From assembly GCA_029238255.1 (NCBI GenBank), contig JAQWGK010000037.1:1-38621 (forward strand): DNA of 38,621 nt, written 5' to 3'. The notes beneath the pieces are model-generated. The model did not search any database. It was given only the letters and a program-made list of their open reading frames with translations, and had not been told where the DNA came from. This document shows positions 1,322 through 6,834 of the stretch, in pieces. Numbering within the stretch: the first letter of the stretch is position 1; each line of letters begins with the position of its first letter. A program made the translations under genes and the position numbers. This DNA comes from Porticoccaceae bacterium. GTDB taxonomy: Bacteria > Pseudomonadota > Gammaproteobacteria > Pseudomonadales > Porticoccaceae.

Positions 1322-1498
1322 ATGCTTAACTACCGACTGGTTGCAGTTCTAATTTTTCTTAGCAGTGTCGTCATACCTCTGGCTTCCAAATGGGCTATTG
1401 AGCCCCAAGGCAATTGGTTTAGACCCTTTGTTGTCTGGGCGATAGTGGTGTTCGCCGCATATATCTTGCAGCGCCACAGGAACACCAATGAGTCTTGA
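1322..1498 (+). CDS. Short membrane protein overlapping the sensor-kinase start
   Basis: A 58-residue frame from the ATG at 1322 to TGA at 1498. It has two hydrophobic stretches (about residues 5-21 and 35-50) and a polar C-terminus, so it is probably a small inner-membrane protein with two helices. Its last 11 bases overlap the ATG of the kinase gene in another frame, a layout suggesting translational coupling. In Pseudomonas a short ORF called cbrX (from memory) sits in the same place before cbrA; I cannot show homology by sequence. An in-frame TTG at 1316 is an alternative start. A purine-rich stretch GACGAG lies about 8-13 bases upstream. Function unknown. Confidence 0.62.
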   Translation: MLNYRLVAVLIFLSSVVIPLASKWAIEPQGNWFRPFVVWAIVVFAAYILQRHRNTNES

Positions 1499-4343
1499 TA
1501 TAGCCACCGCTGCGGCCGGTTTTATTTTCCTCGGGATACTCTGCGCCTACCTGCTAGCAAAATATGGGGGCAGAGCCAGTCACAGTCTAATTTTGGTACT
1601 GGCACTCTTTGCCGGCAGTGGCTCACTGCTGGCCACCGGCACCATTGAGATGGCCGGGCGCTATGGTTACAGCACCCTGCTGGCACTCTTTGCCTTTACC
1701 ATGGTGTTTATTTTTTCGCCGCTAATTTTCTATCCGATCCGCAGGCTCAGTGCGATTATTCGCTTTGCCTCTCTGGTGGATTTTTTAACATTCAGGTTCA
1801 GGGGAAAGACTGTTGCCACCGTTGCCTGCAGTGGCCTGATAATCGCCACCCTGCCACTATTTCTGGCTCAGCTACTGGCTCTTGAATCAGTCCATAACTT
1901 TCTTTTTGATAGCAACAAAATACTATTTTGGCTGTTTTTGGTGGTGGTCATCATCACTATTAACTGGCGCACTATTGAACTTAGCCCGGTGCAAAATCTG
2001 CGCTGGATGATGGCTGCTGCTGGACTTCTGCTGCTGCCTGCTCTGGGACTGGCCGCACTGGTTTCGGTGCAGTCAATCTTTGGCAGTATCGGAGAGATGA
2101 ACAGCTGGGTCGTGGATAGTGGGCAACGGTTTATCGTTCAGCGTATGGATTCATCCTACAGCCTGTTTATTATTTTCCTCGCCGCGAGTTTTGCCCTGCC
2201 GGTTAATTTCACCATTGTGATCTCCGAGCATATTTCCAACCGTCAGGCCGGCATTACCGTTTGGGCATACCCCTTACTTATGCTGCTCGCGAGCATCCCT
2301 GTATTTCCCCTGTTGTGGTCTGGTATCGCGGTGCAATCCGCATCGCCACTGCAGGACTACCTATTTGCTCTTCCTGCACTTACGGAACATCCAATCATTG
2401 CCGGACTGGGTGCGGCGAGTATTATTCTCATCGCCATTGCCCTGCTCTGTAGCATGTCGACCATGCTGGCAAAAATGGTTCTCAATAGTTTTGTTCTACC
2501 CGACAAGCTTTTCCAGAATCAGCCGCGACTGACCCGCTGGATAAACCTTCGCCTGCTATTGGCTTCATCGGCAATACTACTGAGCGCAGTTATGCTCAGT
2601 CAGGTAGTTAAAGAGAACAGTATTACCGATTTATATCTGGTGGGCTTTGCCGGACTGGCGCAGCTTACCCCGGGAATGTTGGCTTCTATTTATCTGCCCA
2701 AAGCCAATCGTCGGGGATTTATTATCGGTCTGATCGGCGGGCTATCAGTATGGTTGGTCGGACTGGCGATACCCCTTTTTAGCGGTGACTGGCAATGGCA
2801 GGTGCCGAGCACGGCGATTACTTTAACCTTTGGTATGGAGAGTTGGGATACCTGGGCCTTCGAAGCACTGATGGTCAATATCGCTCTGTTCACACTTTTT
2901 TCAGCGTTTTCGAAAATGGATGCCGAAGAGAAATTATTTGCCAAACTATGCATGGTCGACAATATCTATATCCCCGCGCGGGTCCAACTCAGTCACGGTT
3001 CTGTCGAAGAGATGACCCAAAGCCTGCGCAACTCTCTCGGCGATGAAGCTGATCGAGAGATCGAGCGCGCGCTGAGCGCACTTGAAATGGATAACAGTGA
3101 AACCAGACCTGCAGCCTTAAGAAAAATTCGCGACTCTCTCAACTCTTCCCTGACTCTGCGTTTTGGCGTACTCGCCGCCTATCGGATTATGGAAGAGTCG
3201 ATTCCGCTAGCCCCTAAGGCAGCGCAAGAGTCCGATGATATTGACCTTATCGAATCGGTTTTAGCGATCCACAGCGACCGCCTGACCGGTATTGCCAGTG
3301 AGCTCAATAAACTGCGTATTCACCATCGCGAGATTATCGACAATCTGCCTACGGGTCTGGTCGCTCTGGGTCAGGACGGAGAGATCCTTAAATGGAACAG
3401 CAGTATGGAGACATACACAGGGCTTTCTGAATCCGATGCCAGAGGTGCACAGATCAGTGATCTGCCCGACCCATGGCAGTCGGTTATCAGTGAGTTTCTC
3501 GATAGCAACCAGAGCAGCAGTGAAAATATGCGCGTCGAAACGGAGGGCAATGCACGCTGGTTTAGCCTGCAGAAGTCGGCGGATCAAAGTACTGACAACG
3601 ATTCGATTCTGCTGATCGAAGAGAGCACAAATTCAGTGCTGCTAACCCAGAACTATATCAATAATGAACGCCTTGCTTCAGTGGGTCGTCTCGCCGCTGG
3701 TGTGGCTCATGAGATAGGTAATCCAGTCACCGGTATCGCCTGTATTGCGCAGAATCTGCAACATGAAACTGAAGCGGGTGAAATTCAGAAATCTGCTGAT
3801 CAAATCCTCTCGCAAACCAATCGCATCAATCTAATTGTTCAATCGCTGATTAATTTTTCTCGCGGTGAACGAAGCCTGCAAAATAACTCCCAGCCGGTCA
3901 ATGTGCGCGAGGCAGCAGACGAGGCGATCCAACTGCTGAGTCTCAGCAACCAACAGGTTAAACAACAATTTATCTGCACCCTCAGTGCCGACCTGCATAT
4001 TCTCGGGGACCACCATCAACTGGTGCAGGTGCTGCTCAATCTATTGAGCAATGCCCGTGATGCCTCCAACGAGGGAAGCCCGGTTACTGTCAGCGGTGAA
4101 CTTCAGGATCAAAAGCTGAGCATAATGGTTAGTGATAGCGGCAGTGGTATTGACGATGATATTCAAGACCGGCTGTTTGAGCCCTTTGTCACTTCAAAGC
4201 AGCCGGGAGAGGGAACCGGTCTCGGTCTGTGGATTGTCTTTAGTCTGGTTAAAAATCTCGGCGGTGAGATCAATCTGATCAGTCCTGCGATTAACAGTGA
4301 TCGCGGTACCACTGCACAGTTGCACTTTACTCTTTACAAGTAG
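1488..4343 (+). CDS. cbrA: CbrA-type sensor histidine kinase with sodium/solute symporter N-terminal domain
   Basis: A 951-residue hybrid. Residues 1 to about 480 are a multi-pass membrane domain of the sodium:solute symporter (SLC5) type. A soluble helical linker follows (about 490-600, STAC-like), then a PAS domain (about 620-715, starting near EIIDNLPTGLVAL). The kinase core has the H-box AAGVAHEIGNP with phospho-acceptor His741, an N-box around Asn855 (NLLSNARDAS), G1 DSGSGID with Asp883, and the F/G2 run FVTSKQPGEGTGLGLWI. In Pseudomonas CbrA controls carbon/nitrogen balance and use of amino acids such as histidine; the neighbours gluQ upstream and pcnB-folK-panB downstream match that locus. 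The start is the ATG inside the preceding short ORF. A 103-base gap separates it from the regulator. Whether the symporter part transports anything cannot be judged here. Confidence 0.88.
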   Translation: MSLDIATAAAGFIFLGILCAYLLAKYGGRASHSLILVLALFAGSGSLLATGTIEMAGRYGYSTLLALFAFTMVFIFSPLIFYPIRRLSAIIRFASLVDFLTFRFRGKTVATVACSGLIIATLPLFLAQLLALESVHNFLFDSNKILFWLFLVVVIITINWRTIELSPVQNLRWMMAAAGLLLLPALGLAALVSVQSIFGSIGEMNSWVVDSGQRFIVQRMDSSYSLFIIFLAASFALPVNFTIVISEHISNRQAGITVWAYPLLMLLASIPVFPLLWSGIAVQSASPLQDYLFALPALTEHPIIAGLGAASIILIAIALLCSMSTMLAKMVLNSFVLPDKLFQNQPRLTRWINLRLLLASSAILLSAVMLSQVVKENSITDLYLVGFAGLAQLTPGMLASIYLPKANRRGFIIGLIGGLSVWLVGLAIPLFSGDWQWQVPSTAITLTFGMESWDTWAFEALMVNIALFTLFSAFSKMDAEEKLFAKLCMVDNIYIPARVQLSHGSVEEMTQSLRNSLGDEADREIERALSALEMDNSETRPAALRKIRDSLNSSLTLRFGVLAAYRIMEESIPLAPKAAQESDDIDLIESVLAIHSDRLTGIASELNKLRIHHREIIDNLPTGLVALGQDGEILKWNSSMETYTGLSESDARGAQISDLPDPWQSVISEFLDSNQSSSENMRVETEGNARWFSLQKSADQSTDNDSILLIEESTNSVLLTQNYINNERLASVGRLAAGVAHEIGNPVTGIACIAQNLQHETEAGEIQKSADQILSQTNRINLIVQSLINFSRGERSLQNNSQPVNVREAADEAIQLLSLSNQQVKQQFICTLSADLHILGDHHQLVQVLLNLLSNARDASNEGSPVTVSGELQDQKLSIMVSDSGSGIDDDIQDRLFEPFVTSKQPGEGTGLGLWIVFSLVKNLGGEINLISPAINSDRGTTAQLHFTLYK

Positions 4344-4446: not shown

Positions 4447-5004
4447 ATGACTAAAACCAGTATCAAACACCATATTCTGATTGTTGAAGATGAAGAGATA
4501 ATTCGCAGCTCGCTGCGCAAATTACTCGAGCGACATGATTATCTGGTTAGCGATGCGGTGAGTATCAAGTCAGCCCGCGAGCTATTTGATTTTTCCGACT
4601 TCTCTCTGATTATCAGCGACCTGCGATTACCGGGACAGTCCGGCACCGATCTTATTGAACTGGCCAAGCCGGTACCGGTATTAATTATGACCAGCTATGC
4701 GAGCCTTCGGTCTGCGGTTGAAACCATGCGTCAGGGAGCGGTGGATTATATTTCCAAACCTTTTGACCACGATGAAATAATGGTCTCGGTAAAACGTATT
4801 ATCGATGCCCCTAAAAAGGTCATTGAAGTTTCTGCCGGTCTCTCTCTGGAAGACTATTTCACCAGATTTGTGCTCGAAAATCAGGAGCATATGAACGAGA
4901 CGGATCTGGCTAAAAAGCTAGGTATTAGCCGTAAAAGTCTATGGCAACGGCGCAATAAATTGGGCATCAATCGCAAGAAGGCCAGCGAAGATTCAACAGA
5001 TTAA
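4447..5004 (+). CDS. Response regulator, receiver plus Fis-type HTH, lacking AAA+ domain (CbrB position)
   Basis: A 185-residue regulator, presumed partner of the kinase just upstream. The receiver domain (about 8-120) has acidic residues Glu14-Asp15, phospho-acceptor Asp58 (LIISDLRLPG), Thr82 (IMTSY) and Lys104 (ISKPFD). A Fis-like DNA-binding helix-turn-helix follows almost directly (about 130-178), with recognition helix ISRKSLWQRRNKLGI, the type found at the C-terminus of NtrC-family activators. In Pseudomonas the gene here is cbrB, a full NtrC-family protein of roughly 480 residues with a central AAA+ sigma-54-activating domain. That domain, including any GAFTGA motif, is missing. The architecture resembles ActR/PrrA/RegA regulators, so it could be one of those or a CbrB that lost its middle. 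No clear ribosome binding site is visible. Confidence 0.87.
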   Translation: MTKTSIKHHILIVEDEEIIRSSLRKLLERHDYLVSDAVSIKSARELFDFSDFSLIISDLRLPGQSGTDLIELAKPVPVLIMTSYASLRSAVETMRQGAVDYISKPFDHDEIMVSVKRIIDAPKKVIEVSAGLSLEDYFTRFVLENQEHMNETDLAKKLGISRKSLWQRRNKLGINRKKASEDSTD

Positions 5005-5103: not shown

Positions 5104-5131
5104 TTGTATGCTGGTGTTATTTGGATACAAT
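5104..5131 (+). promoter_or_regulatory. Candidate sigma-70 promoter for the intergenic small RNA
   Basis: The -10 box TACAAT (5126-5131) matches five of six consensus bases; a weak -35 TTGTAT (5104-5109) lies 16 bases upstream. A transcript would begin near 5138, immediately before the first hairpin of the candidate RNA. Confidence 0.4.
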
Positions 5132-5159
5132 CAGGGAATCAGAACCAGCGGGTTCTGGT

Positions 5160-5191
5160 TATAATAATAATAAAAAATAATAATAATAAAA
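5160..5191 (+). repeat. AAT trinucleotide tract in two blocks
   Basis: Two blocks of AAT/ATA repeats (about 5160-5173 and 5178-5189) separated by an A-run. AATAATAA occurs in overlapping copies at 5163, 5166, 5179 and 5182. As a simple repeat it could change length by slippage, altering the number of motifs. Confidence 0.9.
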
Positions 5192-5264
5192 TCCGGATGG
5201 ATACGAAAGGAGCTTTCTACGGCCTTTAGCTTTAGGTTAATTACAGCCGCAGAAACACTTAGGG

Positions 5265-5291
5265 GGGGCTGTCTTAGGACACCCCTTATTT
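5265..5291 (+). terminator. Terminator-like hairpin ending the candidate small RNA
   Basis: GGGG-(bulged C)-TGTC, loop TTAG, GACA-CCCC, then TTATTT. Extra Gs on the 5' side can pair G-U with the first Ts. The downstream run is broken by an A, so termination may be partial and pcnB could be reached by read-through. Confidence 0.55.
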
Positions 5292-5481
5292 ACTTGCAGT
5301 CTTGATCAGGTTGCCCGCAAGTATTATTCGCTGAGACTATTTCCCTGTTGTACGCTTTCATACTAGCTAATTCCTTACTGTCTATTTCATTGCATCAATT
5401 TCTTTATCGGCAAAGACTCCCGCAGATAGATTTCCTCTGTTAAACTCTCGCACTTAATCATTAACAAATCGGCAGCACTTA

Positions 5482-6834
5482 ATGCTGGAACGCATAAGTA
5501 AGTTCTTCAAAAAAGATAAAAATTCAGATTTTTCTGGCGGCTATGTCTTCGGCCCCAGCGAACACTCCCTGTCGCCTGAAATGATCAATCGCGATGCGCG
5601 CAAAATAGTCGATGTACTGCAAAAAGCTGGCCATGAAGCCTATGTGGTCGGCGGCTGTGTTCGCGATCTACTGCTTGGACTAAAACCTAAAGATTTCGAT
5701 GTGGCCACTAGCGCCAAGCCCTGGGAAGTAAAGGCGCTGTTTCGCCGCTCGCGCATTATCGGCCGCCGCTTTCAAATTGTGCACGTGCAGTTCAGCCGTG
5801 AAATTATTGAAGTCACGACCTTTCGCTCTAACGAAAATCAGAGTAATAGCAAAAATCGTCGTCAGCAGACCGACAGCGGAATGCTTACCAGAGACAATGT
5901 TTTTGGCAGCATTGAGGAAGATGCATCGCGTCGCGATCTAACGGTTAATGCACTCTATTACGATCCCAGTGATAACAGCATTCACGATTTCACTCGAGGT
6001 CTCGATGATGTGGATGACCGCATTATTCGAATTATCGGCGATCCTTCAACACGCTTTCGCGAAGATCCAGTGCGCCTGCTTAGAGTCGCCCGCTTCGCAG
6101 CCAAGCTCGACTTCGAAATTGAGCCCAACACAGCCAAACCCATGAGGCATCGAGCTGGTGATCTGCAACAGGTTTCACCGCCACGGCTATTTGATGAAAC
6201 CCTAAAGTTATTTATGAGCGGCAATGGACTGATTACATTTAAGCTGCTGCTCAAATATAAACTCTTCGAGTATATAGTTCCGCAGCTGAACCCTATGCTC
6301 AATGATCAGCAGGGCCAGCCGCTTAAGCTTGTGGGTCAGGCTTTAATCAATACTGATAAGCGCATCCGCAACTCACAGCGCGTGACTCCGGCATTTATTT
6401 ACGCCGCACTGCTCTGGCCTGTGGTTCAGCGACTGGCGAGCAACTATGAAAAGAACGGTAACTCGCCACCCTACGCACTGAGCAAAGCCGCTGGCGATAT
6501 TATTGCCGCTCAGGTTCCGGTTACCGCAATTCCAAAACGTTTTACCATTCCCATGCGCGAGATATGGGATCTGCAGTTGCACCTTAAGCGCCGCGGTGGA
6601 AATCGAGCCAAACGTCTGGCCGAACACCCACGCTTTAGAGCTGCCTATGATTTTATTTTGCTCCGCGAGCAAGCGGGAGAAGATTTAGACGGCCTCGGAG
6701 ACTGGTGGACTCAGTATCAGGATGTTGATGAAGATCAGCGCCAATCTATGGCTGAGGATGTGTTGAATAAGGACAAGAAGCCCAAGCGACGTCGCCGCCG
6801 ACGCAACCAAAGCCCAAAGCCTGACAATGGCTAA
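5482..6834 (+). CDS. pcnB: Poly(A) polymerase I
   Basis: PcnB adds 3' poly(A) tails to RNA and so promotes decay by the degradosome and exonucleases. It is 450 residues, close to the family's usual 450-470. Seen: the nucleotidyltransferase motif GGCVRDLLLG (57-66) with the metal-binding carboxylates DFD (71-73), the RRFQIVHV stretch, and the head-domain motif SRRDLTVNALYY. The C-terminus is strongly basic (KKPKRRRRRR), as usual for RNA binding in PcnB and unlike CCA-adding enzymes. The long gap upstream suggests its own promoter, although I could not pick one. The stop overlaps the folK start by 8 bases, so the two are co-translated. Confidence 0.95.
   Translation: MLERISKFFKKDKNSDFSGGYVFGPSEHSLSPEMINRDARKIVDVLQKAGHEAYVVGGCVRDLLLGLKPKDFDVATSAKPWEVKALFRRSRIIGRRFQIVHVQFSREIIEVTTFRSNENQSNSKNRRQQTDSGMLTRDNVFGSIEEDASRRDLTVNALYYDPSDNSIHDFTRGLDDVDDRIIRIIGDPSTRFREDPVRLLRVARFAAKLDFEIEPNTAKPMRHRAGDLQQVSPPRLFDETLKLFMSGNGLITFKLLLKYKLFEYIVPQLNPMLNDQQGQPLKLVGQALINTDKRIRNSQRVTPAFIYAALLWPVVQRLASNYEKNGNSPPYALSKAAGDIIAAQVPVTAIPKRFTIPMREIWDLQLHLKRRGGNRAKRLAEHPRFRAAYDFILLREQAGEDLDGLGDWWTQYQDVDEDQRQSMAEDVLNKDKKPKRRRRRRNQSPKPDNG

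What the first reader, a model, noticed from the sequence alone, without database searches (positions are those of the whole stretch)
5138..5291. Candidate CrcZ-like RNA at the crcZ position, with dense AATAATAA motifs
Seen: a promoter-like sequence, a 5' hairpin, two clusters of overlapping AATAATAA and a terminator-like hairpin in the gap between a CbrA/regulator pair and pcnB. Known: in Pseudomonas the Hfq/Crc-sequestering RNA CrcZ lies between cbrB and pcnB and works through A-rich motifs of the AAYAAYAA kind. Inferred: a shorter RNA doing the same job, with motifs packed in one tract instead of spread out. If true, this extends CrcZ-type carbon control beyond Pseudomonas with a different RNA design.
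Basis: partly seen in the sequence, partly recalled or inferred. Interest (0 to 1): 0.75.

Follow-up and report, generated by a model that had tools for sequence, protein, structure and literature searches.

The report
Stripped-down CrcZ-like RNA in SAR92
Ocean bacteria of the SAR92 clade appear to keep a short relative of a known carbon-control RNA, built to soak up the RNA-binding protein Hfq, although they seem to have lost the partner protein and the activator machinery that this RNA works with in Pseudomonas.

Summary
The feature is real and more than chance. Between a cbrB-like gene and pcnB lies a probable ~150-nt RNA gene (about 5137-5291): 5' hairpin, unpaired (AAN)n tract, conserved GGATGGAT element, variable stem, terminator-like hairpin. 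A covariance model built from such copies matches 37 of 50 SAR92-genus genomes. In 36 aligned copies the tract varies almost only at every third base, as expected for Hfq's distal face.

Sister genera of the same family carry intermediates: a short RNA with the same element, a sigma-54-type promoter and Crc. So this is most likely a CrcZ-type RNA by descent. In SAR92, however, no Crc was found (0 of 50 genomes), CbrB lacks the sigma-54-contacting GAFTGA loop (0 of 33 named loci), and the promoter is sigma-70-like (35 of 35 readable). The window's CbrB has no AAA+ domain. Some relatives have the RNA but no CbrB beside it.

Best reading: a sigma-70-driven, Crc-less Hfq decoy. Transcription, Hfq binding and targets are inferred. 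New variant of a known kind.

The parts
1488..4343 (+). CbrA-like sensor kinase (hydrophobic N-terminal half by eye; PAS, HisKA, HATPase)
   Evidence: ORF; Pfam PAS, HisKA, HATPase_c; NCBIfam gives only kinase models far below their cut-offs, so the name rests on position and its CbrB-like neighbour
4447..5004 (+). CbrB-like response regulator, 185 aa: receiver + C-terminal CbrB-type HTH region, AAA+ domain absent
   Evidence: Pfam Response_reg only; HTH region 94.7% identical in G018, 83.3% in G017, and aligned to CbrB of other families
5104..5131 (+). sigma-70-like promoter TTGTAT-16-TACAAT
   Evidence: TTG at 16-18 nt from a -10-like hexamer in 35 of 36 copies, the 36th cut by its contig
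5137..5291 (+). proposed small RNA (transcript ends inferred)
   Evidence: alignment of 36 copies; model R1 matches 37 of 50 genus genomes
5137..5160 (+). 5' hairpin, 10 bp
   Evidence: at least 6 bp in 25 of 36 copies against 21% of shuffles, mean -6.25 against -1.67 kcal/mol
5163..5191 (+). (AAN)n tract: ARN runs of 5 (5163-5177) and 4 (5179-5190), candidate Hfq distal-face sites
5195..5210 (+). conserved element GGATGGATACGAAAGG (mostly TTGGATGGATTGCGAAAG in relatives)
   Evidence: alignment columns 66-68 (G A T) identical in 36 of 36; shared with sister genera
5207..5260 (+). variable middle stem
5263..5287 (+). terminator-like hairpin followed by TATTT
   Evidence: compensatory changes at 6 of 10 pairs
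5436..5446 (+). TCTGTTAAACT, -10-like element of a probable separate pcnB promoter
   Evidence: TCTGNTARRCT 28-43 nt before the ATG in 34 of 34 SAR92 gaps, also where the RNA is missing
5482..6834 (+). pcnB, poly(A) polymerase
   Evidence: TIGR01942, 525 bits

Best explanation
A gene for a ~150-nt, sigma-70-transcribed Hfq decoy RNA, descended from the CrcZ-type RNA found at the same place in other Pseudomonadales. Proposed working: the 5' hairpin and terminator protect the ends; the unpaired tract offers two out-of-phase blocks of (ARN)n that occupy the distal face of one or two Hfq hexamers, freeing mRNAs whose start regions carry similar A-rich motifs. Unlike CrcZ it would work with Hfq alone, because no Crc was found, and its level would be set by a sigma-70 promoter rather than by CbrB acting on sigma-54 RNA polymerase. 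Shown by sequence: architecture, conservation, AAN periodicity, promoter type, no detectable Crc, loss of GAFTGA or of AAA+, intermediate forms. Inferred: transcription, Hfq binding, decoy function, targets, inducing signal.
For: Alignment columns 35-36, 38-39, 42, 45-46, 48-49 and 51-52 are A in 36 of 36 copies (column 41 in 34) while every third column, and the slip column 44, varies. All 36 copies have one (13) or two (23) ARN runs of at least four; permuted sequences average 0.11. (ARN)n, n>=4, is the unit counted for CrcZ in PMC4063720 (passages). Hfq in 34 of 35 genus genomes. Sister genera G288, G127, G229 carry a short RNA with the same GGATGGATTGC element, a TGGCAC..TGC site, a GAFTGA CbrB and Crc. 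The RNA is kept where no CbrB stands beside it (L173, L175, L177, L179, L264), so it seems selected apart from CbrB.
Against: No expression or binding data. Copies were picked with a motif that asks for AAN repeats, which favours the tract. The genome-wide scan for AAYAAYAAYAAY gave 24 matches against 25 for the reversed pattern, so no excess of target-like sites. The GGATGGAT element is conserved better than a pure decoy needs. Two ARN blocks are few against six in CrcZ, so decoying needs high expression. 13 of 50 genus genomes have no match, seven of them among the 30 best assemblies, including single-contig G023; in HTCC2207 the gap is 89 nt, so the RNA is dispensable.
Confidence: 0.66

Rival explanations
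1. A base-pairing Hfq-dependent sRNA: the AAN tract is only its Hfq distal-face handle, and the GGAUGGAUUGCGAAAG element is the seed that pairs with target mRNAs.
For: Columns 66-68 of the element are identical in 36 of 36 copies and the element is shared with sister genera; terminator plus A-rich handle is the plan of distal-face-binding sRNAs (recalled).
Against: Position and intermediates tie it to CrcZ-type RNAs; the flanks of the invariant GAT vary between sub-clades, and in the window part of it can pair (5191-5202). No target search with this seed was made.
Confidence: 0.2
2. A double sponge: AAN tract for Hfq and the GGATGGA element for CsrA/RsmA.
For: GGA motifs in the element; RsmA and RsmN are reported to bind CrcZ (passage in PMC8871633).
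Against: Only one or two GGA in the element, and some copies (GTTTGATT) have none there; csrA was not searched for in these genomes.
Confidence: 0.06
3. A regulatory leader or attenuator of pcnB rather than a separate RNA.
For: Directly upstream of pcnB on the same strand in the gaps read.
Against: Own terminator-like hairpin, and a conserved promoter-like element between it and pcnB in 34 of 34 gaps, kept where the RNA is missing.
Confidence: 0.04
4. A decaying relic of crcZ without function.
For: No Crc, CbrB activation of sigma-54 lost; RNA missing in the HTCC2207/MOLA455 group.
Against: Invariant AAN positions, compensatory terminator changes, a conserved promoter of a new type.
Confidence: 0.04

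Closest known systems
CrcZ (Rfam RF01675) with CrcY/CrcX of Pseudomonas and Azotobacter
   Same: Place between cbrB and pcnB, (ARN)n tracts, terminator, Hfq in the genome, linked through sister genera with intermediate RNAs.
   Different: About 150 against 407 nt (length from PMC4063720); two adjacent ARN blocks against six; sigma-70-like instead of sigma-54 promoter; no Crc found; no match to the Rfam model; CbrB without the loop or domain needed to act on sigma-54.
Short CrcZ-type RNAs of Porticoccaceae sister genera (G288, G127, G229) found here
   Same: A-rich tract followed by GGATGGATTGC and a terminator-like hairpin, same gene order.
   Different: They keep a sigma-54-type promoter, TGTTAC/GTAACA sites, GAFTGA CbrB and Crc; motifs more spread.
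Distal-face-binding Hfq sRNAs of enterobacteria (recalled, e.g. ChiX)
   Same: AAN motifs plus terminator.
   Different: Those act by seed pairing; no seed target is known here.
RsmY/RsmZ and CsrB protein-sequestering RNAs
   Same: Decoy logic, a parallel drawn for CrcZ in PMC4063720 (passage).
   Different: Other protein and motif.

Membership tests
CrcZ-type RNA | Lies between cbrB and pcnB | tested here: met
CrcZ-type RNA | Several (ARN)n, n>=4, runs | tested here: met
   Two in the window; two in 23 and one in 13 of 36 copies
CrcZ-type RNA | Matches Rfam RF01675 | tested here: not met
   0 of 35 genus genomes (strict filters, 20 candidates scored per genome); no CrcZ hit in the gap up to E = 10
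CrcZ-type RNA | Sigma-54 promoter | tested here: not met
   TGGCA-N7-GC pattern in 33 of 33 other gaps but 1 of 33 SAR92 gaps (L164); none seen in the window gap
CrcZ-type RNA | CbrB as activator, with GAFTGA and TGTTAC/GTAACA sites | tested here: not met
   Window CbrB lacks AAA+; window has no TGTTWC-N3..7-GTAAYA site, 11 of 35 SAR92 gaps have one
CrcZ-type RNA | Crc as partner of Hfq | tested here: not met
   G000's gene is ExoIII-type; Crc query: 0 of 50 SAR92 genomes better than 2.4e-16, against E below 1e-50 in 17 of 21 other families, the query's own genome included
CrcZ-type RNA | Binds Hfq distal face and titrates it | not testable with these tools
   hfq present; binding inferred from AAN periodicity
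CrcZ-type RNA | Common descent | tested here: inconclusive
   Synteny and intermediates argue for it; sequence too short and A-rich for proof
Base-pairing sRNA | Seed complementary to conserved target sites | not tested
   no target search with the element was made

The most novel reading that the evidence does not exclude
The RNA is an Hfq decoy that has outlived its regulatory circuit: Crc gone, CbrB deprived of sigma-54 action or lost, and a new sigma-70 promoter, so that Hfq availability in SAR92 follows growth or housekeeping transcription. One gene under this Hfq control would be proteorhodopsin, whose leaders carry (ARN)4 or longer in 19 of 29 genomes, linking light-energy capture to Hfq. 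(Odds lowered from 0.15 on recount: the motif is no rarer where the RNA is missing.)
Probability: 0.12. Interest if true: 0.82.

Novelty: new variant of a known kind. Interest (0 to 1): 0.62.

Why it matters
The CbrAB system with crcZ is described as unique to Pseudomonadaceae (PMC8871633, section read). Here its gene order with CrcZ-type gaps appears in several other families of Pseudomonadales, and SAR92 offers a natural experiment in which the protein partner, the activator function and the promoter class were lost or exchanged while the Hfq-binding part of the RNA stayed. It makes testable whether Hfq sequestration alone is the conserved core of the system, and how a marine clade uses Hfq without Crc.

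Tried and rejected
Rfam in the gap: only chance hits. A sigma-54 site in the window gap: none seen. Loss of RpoN as the reason: rejected, rpoN is present in 33 of 35 genus genomes. RNA moved elsewhere in genomes whose gap lacks it: model R1 finds none (strict filters). A second copy like CrcY: none found; G009's second hit is a contig-end piece. Hfq residue 25 is F instead of Y in the 10 SAR92 proteins read, but also in the 2 of other families that my pattern could read (10 more were not read): not special. Genome-wide target motif: no excess. RNAalifold on alignment A1 recovered only the terminator, because 5' hairpins differ in register; single folds and shuffles were used instead. In one search the own-versus-swapped arm figure (99% against 57%) is biased, since arms came from each sequence's own fold; I do not rest on it. 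One search's first regex missed many CbrB proteins; one search replaced it and still left many other-family proteins unread. The last column (SAR92rna) is a loose regex and was not used. Rows dropped before the alignment: duplicates of the same genome, and L078, a non-SAR92 regex hit. No structure prediction or fold search was run.

Full report
WHAT IS THERE. The gap between a 185-aa CbrB-like gene (4447-5004) and pcnB (5482-6834) holds, on the + strand, TTGTAT-16-TACAAT (5104-5131), a 10-bp hairpin (5137-5160), an A-rich tract (5163-5191), GGATGGATACGAAAGG (5195-5210), a middle stem (5207-5260) and a terminator-like hairpin (5263-5287). All three AAYAAYAAYAA matches of the 38.6-kb window lie here, against 0.12 expected. 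The strand folds better than shuffles, z = -3.09. The simple promoter/terminator scan misses both ends, so the case rests on comparison.

CONSERVATION. The genus was identified through pcnB in named genomes as the SAR92 clade (HTCC2207, Porticoccaceae). Of 30 genus gaps read, 27 have a dense tract; the other three are 89 nt long. I aligned 36 copies: 35 non-duplicate rows from a motif search, plus L044 by hand. That search asked for at least two AANAANAA before a GAT..CA-type core, which favours the tract; the 30 gaps show no RNA without it. Columns 35-36, 38-39, 42, 45-46, 48-49 and 51-52 are A in 36 of 36 and column 41 in 34; columns 37, 40, 43, 44, 47, 50 and 53 vary. The phase slips by one base at column 44, giving two blocks. 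This is the pattern expected from selection for A-A-N triplets on the Hfq distal face. All 36 have one or two ARN runs of at least four (13 and 23); permutation gives 0.11 on average. The 5' segment folds at -6.25 kcal/mol on average against -1.67 when shuffled, and 25 of 36 against 21% have at least 6 pairs, although the hairpin sequences differ. Six of ten terminator pairs show compensatory changes. A covariance model matches 37 of 50 genus genomes (23 of 30 good ones). By my tally at least 32 of these 37 supplied rows to the model, so this is a census, not an independent test. Independent of it are 4 further genomes among 244 drawn from the order, at E 3.5e-6 to 5.7e-5, all four in other genera of the same family.

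THE PROMOTER AND CbrB. TTG lies 16, 17 or 18 nt before a -10-like hexamer in 35 of 36 copies; the other is cut by its contig. The -10 boxes were placed by eye in some rows and four to six are poor (GAGAAT, TATATG). Of 80 named loci, 66 have a readable cbrB-pcnB gap: 33 SAR92 and 33 others. Others: the sigma-54 pattern TGGCA-N7-GC in 33 of 33, and GAFTGA/GSFTGA in CbrB of 31, plus L209, whose frame is broken by N stretches; L193 is cut by its contig end. SAR92: GAFTGA in 0 of 33 and the sigma-54 pattern in 1 of 33 (L164). In the unnamed set GAFTGA is missing from 28 of 28 SAR92 CbrB read and present in 7 of 7 from other families read; two SAR92 and many others were not read. The SAR92 CbrB of normal length that I looked at keep a shortened AAA+ region with the loop deleted; in the window group, in L165/L170 and in L174 the AAA+ region is gone. 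On the PcnB tree SAR92 is one clade (100/100) and these fall in three places, so at least three losses on that tree. RpoN is still there (33 of 35). A compact palindrome TGTTWC-N5-GTAAYA, like the CbrB subsites TGTTAC and GTAACA of PMC6296734 (passages), stands upstream in 11 of 35 SAR92 gaps, in none of the 6 AAA+-less ones including the window, and in none of the 5 loci without CbrB, apart from one loose match far upstream in L175. So CbrB may still act on some relatives' promoters, but there is no sign of it here.

CRC. The exonuclease III family model finds, as a rule, one gene in SAR92 (G017 has it in pieces, G025 and G031 only weak hits) and two or more in 14 of 21 other families. The second type is Crc: the G054 protein matches the solved Crc 4jg3 at 531 bits, while the G000 gene matches E. 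coli exonuclease III 1ako at 269 bits, with no Crc entry among its 50 matches (that query lacked about the first 49 residues). With Crc as query, no SAR92 genome of 50 scores better than 2.4e-16, at the ExoIII-type genes where I compared places, against E below 1e-50 in 17 of 21 other families, the query's own genome included; of the other four, G050 and G051 give 6.9e-36 and 5.5e-28, G036 and G052 nothing. Several SAR92 genomes are incomplete, but 0 of 50 is not explained by that. Hfq is present in 34 of 35.

INTERMEDIATES. Four genomes of two sister genera have the RNA with the same GGATGGATTGC element, a TGGCAC..TGC promoter and Crc (E 3.1e-62 to 3.8e-68); CbrB has GAFTGA in three (G288, G127, G229), while in G156 it is AAA+-less although the sigma-54-type site remains. 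Two further family members (G090, G184) have neither Crc nor a model match. The likely order is: compact RNA first, then, on or near the SAR92 stem, loss of Crc, of the GAFTGA loop and of the sigma-54 promoter.

DECOUPLING. In L173, L175, L177 and L179 no CbrB-type HTH is found beside pcnB, and the RNA with its sigma-70-like promoter stands there; by eye, L173 and L179 show the end of a gluQRS frame next to it. For two of these genomes (G014, G008) a whole-genome search with the window's CbrB found only distant response regulators, best 2.5e-13 and 2.2e-15. L264 has the same RNA and no such HTH in its 3.0-kb stretch. HTCC2207, MOLA455 and three relatives (89-nt gap) and L149 (166 nt) keep CbrB but not the RNA. 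The RNA and CbrB are thus no longer a unit.

MECHANISM. From PMC4063720 (passages): Hfq represses A-rich leaders through its distal face, and CrcZ, with six (ARN)n of n at least 4, titrates it. From PMC8266614 (passages): Crc did not significantly raise Hfq's affinity for an amiE RNA, and repression of reporters fell by about half without Crc. A Crc-less decoy is therefore feasible. I put 0.66 on an Hfq decoy and 0.20 on a seed-pairing sRNA that uses the conserved GGATGGATTGC.

TARGETS. AAYAAYAAYAAY occurs 24 times in the genome against 25 for the reversed pattern: no excess. Five sites lie just before starts of plausible genes and one in the first codons of another; one of the five is proteorhodopsin (Pfam Bac_rhodopsin). 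Proteorhodopsin was found in 42 of 50 genus genomes; 30 loci were fetched and 29 had a readable leader. Of these 19 hold (ARN) of at least 4 within 45 nt of the ATG, 0.97 expected by permutation, against 0 of 34 for pcnB leaders and 4 of 10 for hfq leaders. Against a link with this RNA: the motif is in 9 of 9 genomes without the RNA and in 10 of 20 with it. The rows are related and the gene was picked because G000 had the motif, so this is a lead about Hfq, hardly about the RNA.

PRINT. PMC8871633 states that cbrA-cbrB-crcZ has been described only in Pseudomonas and Azotobacter (section 7 read). Searches for SAR92 + CbrB and for CrcZ + Cellvibrionales gave no paper; CrcZ + cbrB + pcnB gave three, all on Pseudomonas by title. 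Wider searches showed nothing on this RNA in the titles and abstract openings listed: 30 of 178, 20 of 2,090, 10 of 5,354, 9 of 9, 8 of 239, 3 of 3. The library is open-access only.

Noticed in passing
G000 C33:27120-27131 (L278, L314) and relatives: Proteorhodopsin leaders carry (ARN) of 4 or more within 45 nt of the ATG in 19 of 29 genomes, 0.97 expected by permutation; 9 of 9 without the RNA and 10 of 20 with it.
   Followed up: partly
L258 (G156): A sister-genus genome has an AAA+-less CbrB (234-aa open frame) but keeps a TGGCACAGAACCTGC sigma-54-like site: another activator, or a promoter about to die.
   Followed up: no
L133, L134 (G010, G005): CbrB receiver domain has ITEQLFN / ISEQLFN in place of VEDEEI, so the acidic pocket looks lost, yet a perfect TGTTAC-N5-GTAACA stands upstream of the RNA (same genomes as L176, L178).
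   Followed up: no
gaps of G037, G046, G044, G042: Other families of the order have short CrcZ-type candidates behind sigma-54-like sites (G042 without AAYAAYAA); G037 and G046 have TGGATGG just before the terminator hairpin.
   Followed up: no
L182-L219: Cellvibrio, Microbulbifer, Gilvimarinus and others have CbrB-pcnB gaps of 633-1319 nt with a sigma-54 site and 1 to 21 AAYAAYAA motifs: CrcZ-type RNAs that the review knows only from Pseudomonas and Azotobacter.
   Followed up: partly
window 5436-5446: TCTGTTAAACT 35 nt before the pcnB ATG, conserved in 34 of 34 SAR92 gaps: probable pcnB promoter.
   Followed up: partly
hfq leaders, L132, L097-L099, L296-L301: 4 of 10 SAR92 hfq leaders carry (ARN) of 4 or more near the start (0.4 expected): possible self-repression by Hfq.
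   Followed up: no
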